Assembly (NCBI GenBank): GCA_016223135.1
Contig: JACRPQ010000005.1
Coordinates: 302,873 to 366,872, forward strand
Origin: Chloroflexota bacterium
GTDB lineage: Bacteria; Chloroflexota; Anaerolineae; Anaerolineales; Villigracilaceae
DNA length: 64,000 nucleotides
Reading direction: 5' to 3'
Notes under the pieces: generated by a model
Seen by the model: the letters and a program-made list of their open reading frames with translations, nothing else
Databases searched by the model: none
Told to the model about the DNA's origin: nothing
Shown here: piece by piece, positions 29,644-30,006 of the stretch
How the letters are laid out: every line of letters starts with the position of its first letter
Numbering within the stretch: the first letter of the stretch is position 1
Translations under genes and position numbers: made by a program

Positions 29644-30006
29644 TTAGAAGACGAGAACGTGGTCTGCCTCCACCGTCCACTCTCCCGCCAGGTCGAGGTT
29701 GCCGTTGAGGACGGAGTCTATCTTGAGTTCAGGCTCGAGCCCGCGAGCCTCACTGCAAGACCCTCAGGTTGCCACCTGCCCGCGCGCGACGAGCGATTTG
29801 ATCATTCGCTCCACGTTGTAATAGCCATCGGGAGTTTTCTGTCCCTTGCGGGCGCACAGGACGGCGTCGCCCATGAGAAAGACCCGTACCTGCACGCCTG
29901 CTTTCTTGGCAAGATTGAGCGCCAGGCGCAGCGCGTTATACGGACGTTCGCTGCCATACGGCGCATCATTGATGACGAAGAGGTATTTCTTTTCGGGTTC
30001 TGTCAT
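29644..30006 (-). CDS. Candidate selenoprotein: DsrE/DsrE-like family, UGSC motif (in-frame TGA 29764-29766 = codon 81 of 120)
   Basis: MTEPEKKYLFVINDAPYGSERPYNALRLALNLAKKAG...RMIKSLVARGQVAT-(TGA)-GSCSEARGLEPELKIDSVLNGNLDLAGEWTVEADHVLVF*; completes the DsrE-like fold. Confidence 0.87.
29731..29766 (-). promoter_or_regulatory. Candidate bacterial SECIS: UGA-N13-AGGCUCG-CGGGCU-CGAGCCU with further outer pairing (AGU/ACU, CUUG/CAAG)
   Basis: 7-bp perfect stem, G at loop position 2, loop 20 nt after UGA. Confidence 0.7.

What the first reader, a model, noticed from the sequence alone, without database searches (positions are those of the whole stretch)
29644..30006. DsrE-like selenoprotein with UxxC (U-G-S-C) motif, missed by ORF calling
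Seen: ORF 29764-30021 stops at TGA (29764-29766) right after ...MIKSLVARGQVAT. The frame continues GSCSEARGLEPELKIDSVLNGNLDLAGEWTVEADHVLVF*, which is the expected DsrE-like C-terminus where family members carry a Cys-x-x-Cys. A 7-bp perfect stem AGGCUCG-CGGGCU-CGAGCCU begins 13 nt after the UGA, with additional outer pairing. Established knowledge (recalled): DsrE-like families are among those in which Sec has been reported in bacterial selenoproteome surveys. Sec replaces the first Cys of the putative redox motif.
Basis: partly seen in the sequence, partly recalled or inferred. Interest (0 to 1): 0.8.

Follow-up and report, generated by a model that had tools for sequence, protein, structure and literature searches.

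The report
DsrE-family selenoprotein in Anaerolineae
A small sulfur-handling protein gene in an Anaerolineae-type bacterium uses an internal UGA "stop" to insert selenocysteine at its reactive site; this kind of selenoprotein is already known, but databases usually cut these genes short, and here they form a whole selenium-using branch often found beside sulfide-oxidation genes.

Summary
The finding is right. On the minus strand, 30006-29644 encodes a 120-residue DsrE/YchN-like protein whose codon 81 is UGA (29766-29764), at the first position of the family's C-x-x-C motif (here U-G-S-C). The reading past UGA is real: dN/dS is the same before and after it; 60 of 80 genomic relatives have UGA at that codon and the other 20 TGC/TGT; a hairpin shortly after the UGA, with an invariant GG in its loop, is fully paired in 57 of 62 UGA genes against 1.9 expected from synonymous recoding, and is absent from Cys homologues. 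The genome has selA, selB, tRNA-Sec(UCA) and selD. The 62 Sec genes form one strongly supported branch, almost all Chloroflexota; Cys forms reappear inside it in metagenome proteins. Many public protein entries are truncated at the UGA. DsrE-like UxxC selenoproteins have been described since 2005, so this is a new, well-supported member of a known kind. A persulfide transfer or reduction role is inferred from recurring neighbours (ArsR regulators, SQR-type flavoproteins, rhodaneses); the window's own copy lies instead beside copper-resistance genes.

The parts
29644..30006 (-). Complete CDS of the DsrE-family selenoprotein, 120 aa plus TAA stop, Sec at codon 81
   Evidence: 60 genomic homologues with UGA at the same codon
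29764..29766 (-). In-frame UGA, selenocysteine codon 81
   Evidence: aligns with first Cys of the CxxC in YchN and in Cys homologues; only TGA, TGC or TGT occur at this codon in the 80 genomic loci
29755..29757 (-). Codon for resolving Cys84 of the U-G-S-C motif
   Evidence: invariant in alignments A2 and A4
29731..29750 (-). Bacterial SECIS-type hairpin, 7-bp stem AGGCUCG/CGAGCCU, apical loop CGGGCU with the invariant GG
   Evidence: 57 of 62 UGA genes have all five core pairs against 1.9 expected from synonymous redraws; 98% pairing in register and 52-55% with a one-base slide; lost in Cys homologues
30016..30019 (-). Shine-Dalgarno-like GGAG, nine bases upstream of ATG 30006
   Evidence: read directly from sequence

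Best explanation
The locus encodes a selenoprotein of the DsrE/DsrF family (YchN-like). Shown by sequence: the frame past UGA codon 81 is under selection, the UGA is followed by a SECIS-type hairpin in the coding region, and the genome holds selA, selB, selD and tRNA-Sec. Inferred from established biology: SelB bound to Sec-tRNA(UCA) docks on the GG-containing loop and inserts selenocysteine at UGA. Predicted: the protein has the YchN/DsrE fold, with Sec81 at the end of a strand just before a helix, and Cys84 one helical turn on. Inferred function: Sec81/Cys84 form a redox or sulfur-carrying pair that accepts, passes on or reduces persulfide sulfur, as DsrE/TusD do with Cys, in sulfide/persulfide oxidation or detoxification. 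The UGA-to-Sec reading is the part held at high confidence; the substrate is a guess at about 0.45.
For: Family: Pfam DsrE 74.3 bits over residues 6-120; E. coli YchN 2.8e-21 by sequence; AF2 model pLDDT 93.8 with strand 77-81 and helix 82-87, top PDB match YchN TM 0.88/0.91, then DsrEFH, TusBCD. Machinery: selB 328.9 bits joined, tRNA-Sec 70.2 bits, anticodon TCA, selA 537 bits, selD 354 bits with UGA at its active-site position, SACAGUASK. Conservation: every one of the 12 matches has one TGA (one also a TAG); 60 UGA, 20 TGC/TGT and nothing else in 80 loci; Sec genes one clade, 100/99, with Cys forms nested inside it in metagenome proteins. Hairpin. Selection. All 28 genomes with the Sec gene that were tested have selB over cut-off or a tRNA-Sec of 67 bits or more. 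Function: ArsR, ArsR-rhodanese, SQR/FCSD-like flavoprotein, rhodanese-metallo-beta-lactamase, MFS and cysteine desulfurase neighbours; 26 of 61 Sec loci have one within 4 kb; the genome's second Sec copy lies 26 bases after an ArsR gene with an SQR-like gene 1.6 kb downstream.
Against: No expression, mass-spectrometric or 75Se evidence. The window copy has none of the sulfur neighbours; it lies 260 bases from a copper P-type ATPase and next to zinc-ribbon and YHS genes. 35 of 61 Sec loci lack the sulfur neighbours within 4 kb, partly because contigs are short. selB is common in this class also in genomes without the gene, so co-occurrence alone is weak evidence. Rfam has no match to the hairpin.
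Confidence: 0.94

Rival explanations
1. The UGA is a sequencing or assembly error for TGC/TGT in an ordinary Cys-type DsrE gene.
For: Window from a draft assembly; Cys homologues exist.
Against: The same UGA occurs in dozens of independent assemblies and in a second, 56%-identical copy in the same genome, with a hairpin that Cys genes lack.
Confidence: 0.01
2. The gene truly ends at UGA, giving an 80-residue protein; the downstream part is a relic.
For: Database gene calls end there (P0012 and 28 others).
Against: dN/dS 0.069 after the UGA equals that before it; the C-terminal strand and helix belong to the fold; Cys forms continue through.
Confidence: 0.02
3. The UGA is read as another amino acid, such as Trp, by suppression or code change.
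For: Five database relatives show W at this position.
Against: P0019 differs from the gene in L102, which has TGA, at two residues beyond the W itself, so its W looks like a table-4 gene-call artefact; TGA is a normal stop in the window; a dedicated tRNA-Sec(UCA) is present; the alternative at this site in genomes is always Cys.
Confidence: 0.01
4. It is a selenoprotein, but its role is copper or other soft-metal handling or general thiol redox rather than sulfur transfer.
For: Window copy and nearest relative L062 sit next to a copper-type P-ATPase with YHS and zinc-ribbon genes; a multicopper oxidase gene is 5 kb away.
Against: Most informative loci are sulfide/persulfide clusters; DsrE-family proteins with known function carry sulfur (established knowledge of DsrEFH and TusBCD).
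Confidence: 0.25

Closest known systems
DsrE-like selenoprotein (Pfam02635, UxxC), Sargasso Sea and Desulfovibrio vulgaris (PMC1088965; PMC1794560; PMC13188914)
   Same: Pfam family PF02635, UxxC motif, Sec in place of the first Cys, SECIS just after UGA.
   Different: Those were 2 environmental sequences and one genome; here a large Anaerolineae-centred branch. Whether the D. vulgaris protein belongs to this branch was not tested.
E. coli YchN (PDB 1jx7)
   Same: Full-length homologue, same fold (TM 0.88/0.91), CKTC motif aligned with UGSC.
   Different: Cys in place of Sec; function unassigned.
DsrE/TusD of DsrEFH and TusBCD
   Same: Same fold family and strand-motif-helix site; sulfur carriers.
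   Different: Below the curated NCBIfam cut-off for TusD (29 against 89 bits); no DsrF/H or TusB/C partners noticed in the neighbourhoods.
UGSC-containing selenoprotein (NF041046)
   Same: Shares the four letters U-G-S-C only.
   Different: Not matched by this protein in the NCBIfam scan; most relatives here have U-G-T-C.

Membership tests
DsrE/DsrF-like family (PF02635) | Match above Pfam gathering score | tested here: met
   74.3 bits against 22.7, whole profile
DsrE/DsrF-like family (PF02635) | DsrE/YchN fold | tested here: met
   AF2 model, pLDDT 93.8; YchN, DsrEFH and TusBCD top matches
Bacterial selenoprotein | In-frame UGA aligned with conserved Cys of homologues | tested here: met
Bacterial selenoprotein | SECIS hairpin directly downstream of UGA in the coding region with G in the apical loop | tested here: met
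Bacterial selenoprotein | selA, selB, selC and selD in the genome | tested here: met
Bacterial selenoprotein | Selenium present in the protein | not testable with these tools
   needs 75Se labelling or mass spectrometry
TusD/DsrE equivalog | Score above TIGR03012 cut-off | tested here: not met
   29 bits against 89.25
DsrE-like selenoprotein family of 2005 | Pfam02635 with UxxC | tested here: met
   orthology to the D. vulgaris gene not tested

The most novel reading that the evidence does not exclude
An Anaerolineae-centred, Sec-based DsrE subfamily serves as a selenosulfide sulfur carrier for SQR-type flavoproteins, under persulfide-sensing ArsR control, so that selenium is used to handle reactive sulfur.
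Probability: 0.3. Interest if true: 0.55.

Novelty: new member of a known kind. Interest (0 to 1): 0.33.

Why it matters
The gene is called 40 residues short in databases and so loses its active site; the same error affects at least 29 of the 120 best database hits. The branch is a clean natural series of Sec and Cys forms in one short protein with a solved homologue, useful for asking what selenium adds to sulfur transfer, and it links selenium use with sulfide oxidation in uncultured Anaerolineae.

Tried and rejected
Rfam gave no SECIS match. In one search the labels oI and oV are a regex slip: those proteins (P0004, P0006, P0011, P0016, P0021) carry Cys (P0004, P0006 and P0011 seen directly; P0016 and P0021 inferred from the same regex pattern). 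MFE alone is a weak test (z -2.0; median -1.4); pairing against synonymous recoding was decisive. SQR-like neighbours best match the 'type III SQR, selenoprotein subtype' model, but far below its cut-off, and end at ordinary stops with no conserved extension, so they were not called selenoproteins.

Full report
Observation. The sequence is as described. The gene lies on the minus strand from ATG 30006 to TAA 29646-29644; codon 81 is TGA at 29766-29764, and the frame continues with the quoted 39 residues. The mechanical ORF list ends at the TGA. A start at ATG 30006 is preferred to 30021 because GGAG lies nine bases before it.

What the protein is. Read through, it matches Pfam DsrE over the whole profile (74.3 bits). 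E. coli YchN is the closest solved structure by sequence (2.8e-21) and by fold (TM 0.88/0.91). UGA aligns with the first Cys of YchN's CKTC. The AlphaFold2 model (pLDDT 93.8) puts residue 81 at the end of strand 77-81, directly before helix 82-87, the usual place of a redox or sulfur-carrying Cys. NCBIfam TusD/DsrE equivalogs score well below cut-off, so it is a DsrE-family protein but not TusD.

Is the UGA read as Sec? Five independent lines agree. (a) Machinery: the 3.8-Mb genome (98% complete) has selB, selA, tRNA-Sec with anticodon UCA, and selD, which itself has a UGA at its active-site position. (b) Conservation: all 12 matches among 60 near genomes, including a second copy in the same genome, carry TGA there; of 80 loci across genomes 60 have TGA and 20 TGC/TGT. 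(c) Selection: dN/dS against the nearest relative is 0.067 before and 0.069 after the UGA. (d) Hairpin: core pairs 19-34 to 23-30 (UGA = 1-3) all form in 57 of 62 UGA genes; redrawing synonymous codons gives 1.9. Pairing is 98% in register and 52-55% when slid by one. GG at the loop is invariant. Pairs vary by compensation (C-G/U-A at 21-32). Cys homologues lack the stem. (e) Sec/Cys exchange: with residue 81 masked, the 62 UGA genes form one clade with 100/99 support, and metagenome proteins with Cys nest inside it. Global recoding is excluded, since TGA ends 16 of 46 long open stretches in the window.

Distribution. The branch is almost confined to Chloroflexota, mainly Anaerolineae, with members labelled Desulfobacteraceae, Thermoanaerobaculia, Firmicutes and Pseudomonadota, some of which may be mis-binned contigs. 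In a sample of 397 genomes of the class, about 18 carry the UGA form, and another dozen carry Cys homologues. All 28 tested genomes with the Sec form have selB over cut-off or a strong tRNA-Sec; 4 of 12 with only the Cys homologue lack selB over cut-off.

Databases. Of the 120 best protein hits, 29 are truncations, nearly all ending in VAT just before the UGA. Five show Trp there; one, P0019, is almost identical to the L102 gene, which has TGA, so the Trp is best explained by gene calling with code 4.

Mechanism and function. Insertion of Sec by SelB at the hairpin is inferred from the known bacterial system. For the function, neighbours are informative in part of the set: ArsR regulators directly upstream, ArsR-rhodanese fusions, SQR/flavocytochrome-c-sulfide-dehydrogenase-like flavoproteins (12 of 61 Sec loci within 2.5 kb on the same strand), rhodanese plus metallo-beta-lactamase proteins like persulfide dioxygenases, MFS transporters and cysteine desulfurases. 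The genome's other copy is in such a cluster (L142). The window copy is not: it stands between zinc-ribbon/YHS genes and a copper-type P-ATPase, like its nearest relative L062. I favour a persulfide relay or reductase, with a copper- or soft-metal-linked role as the main rival.

Novelty. DsrE-like selenoproteins with UxxC were described in the Sargasso Sea survey (PMC1088965), listed for D. vulgaris (PMC1794560) and reviewed as functionally uncharacterised in 2026 (PMC13188914). The paper searches made here did not turn up a report linking them with Anaerolineae or sulfide-oxidation clusters (titles and abstracts only were looked at for most hits), and the library is partial. It is a new member of a known kind, with a clear subfamily and a testable function.

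Noticed in passing
L142:6780-7121 (G000 contig C10; also L030): Second, 56%-identical DsrE-family selenoprotein in the same genome, 26 bases after an ArsR-type regulator and 1.6 kb before an SQR-like flavoprotein.
   Followed up: partly
L031:1501-2436: The genome's SelD is itself a selenoprotein: one in-frame UGA in SACAGUASK.
   Followed up: partly
29519-29608: AT-rich repeats and inverted repeats (AACGCTGATTTACGCTGATTT ... TCTGCGTTTATCTGCGTTTTTCAGCG) between the DsrE gene and the copper ATPase, perhaps a small mobile or terminator-like element; single copy of the core in the window.
   Followed up: partly
26257-35961: Copper-type gene cluster around the finding: DoxX, two YHS proteins, copper P-type ATPase, zinc-ribbon proteins, histidine kinase/LuxR response regulator, multicopper oxidase.
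   Followed up: partly
30532-30816 and L067, L076, L085, L108: A small Cys-rich double-zinc-ribbon protein (MCGCMLMHA...MDH) recurs beside Sec-type DsrE genes in about six loci; function unknown.
   Followed up: no
L107:10325-10327 (same gene as L027): One Sec homologue (Anaerolineae UTCFX1) has an additional in-frame TAG 32 codons after the UGA; error, pseudogene or shortened protein.
   Followed up: no
P0002, P0007, P0014, P0019, P0022: Public metagenome proteins with Trp at the Sec position, best explained by gene calling under code 4; a possible way to find mis-called selenoproteins.
   Followed up: partly
L085:5725-6963, L142:8675-9910: SQR-like neighbours best match NF049943 (type III SQR, selenoprotein subtype) far below its cut-off; no in-frame UGA extension seen.
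   Followed up: partly
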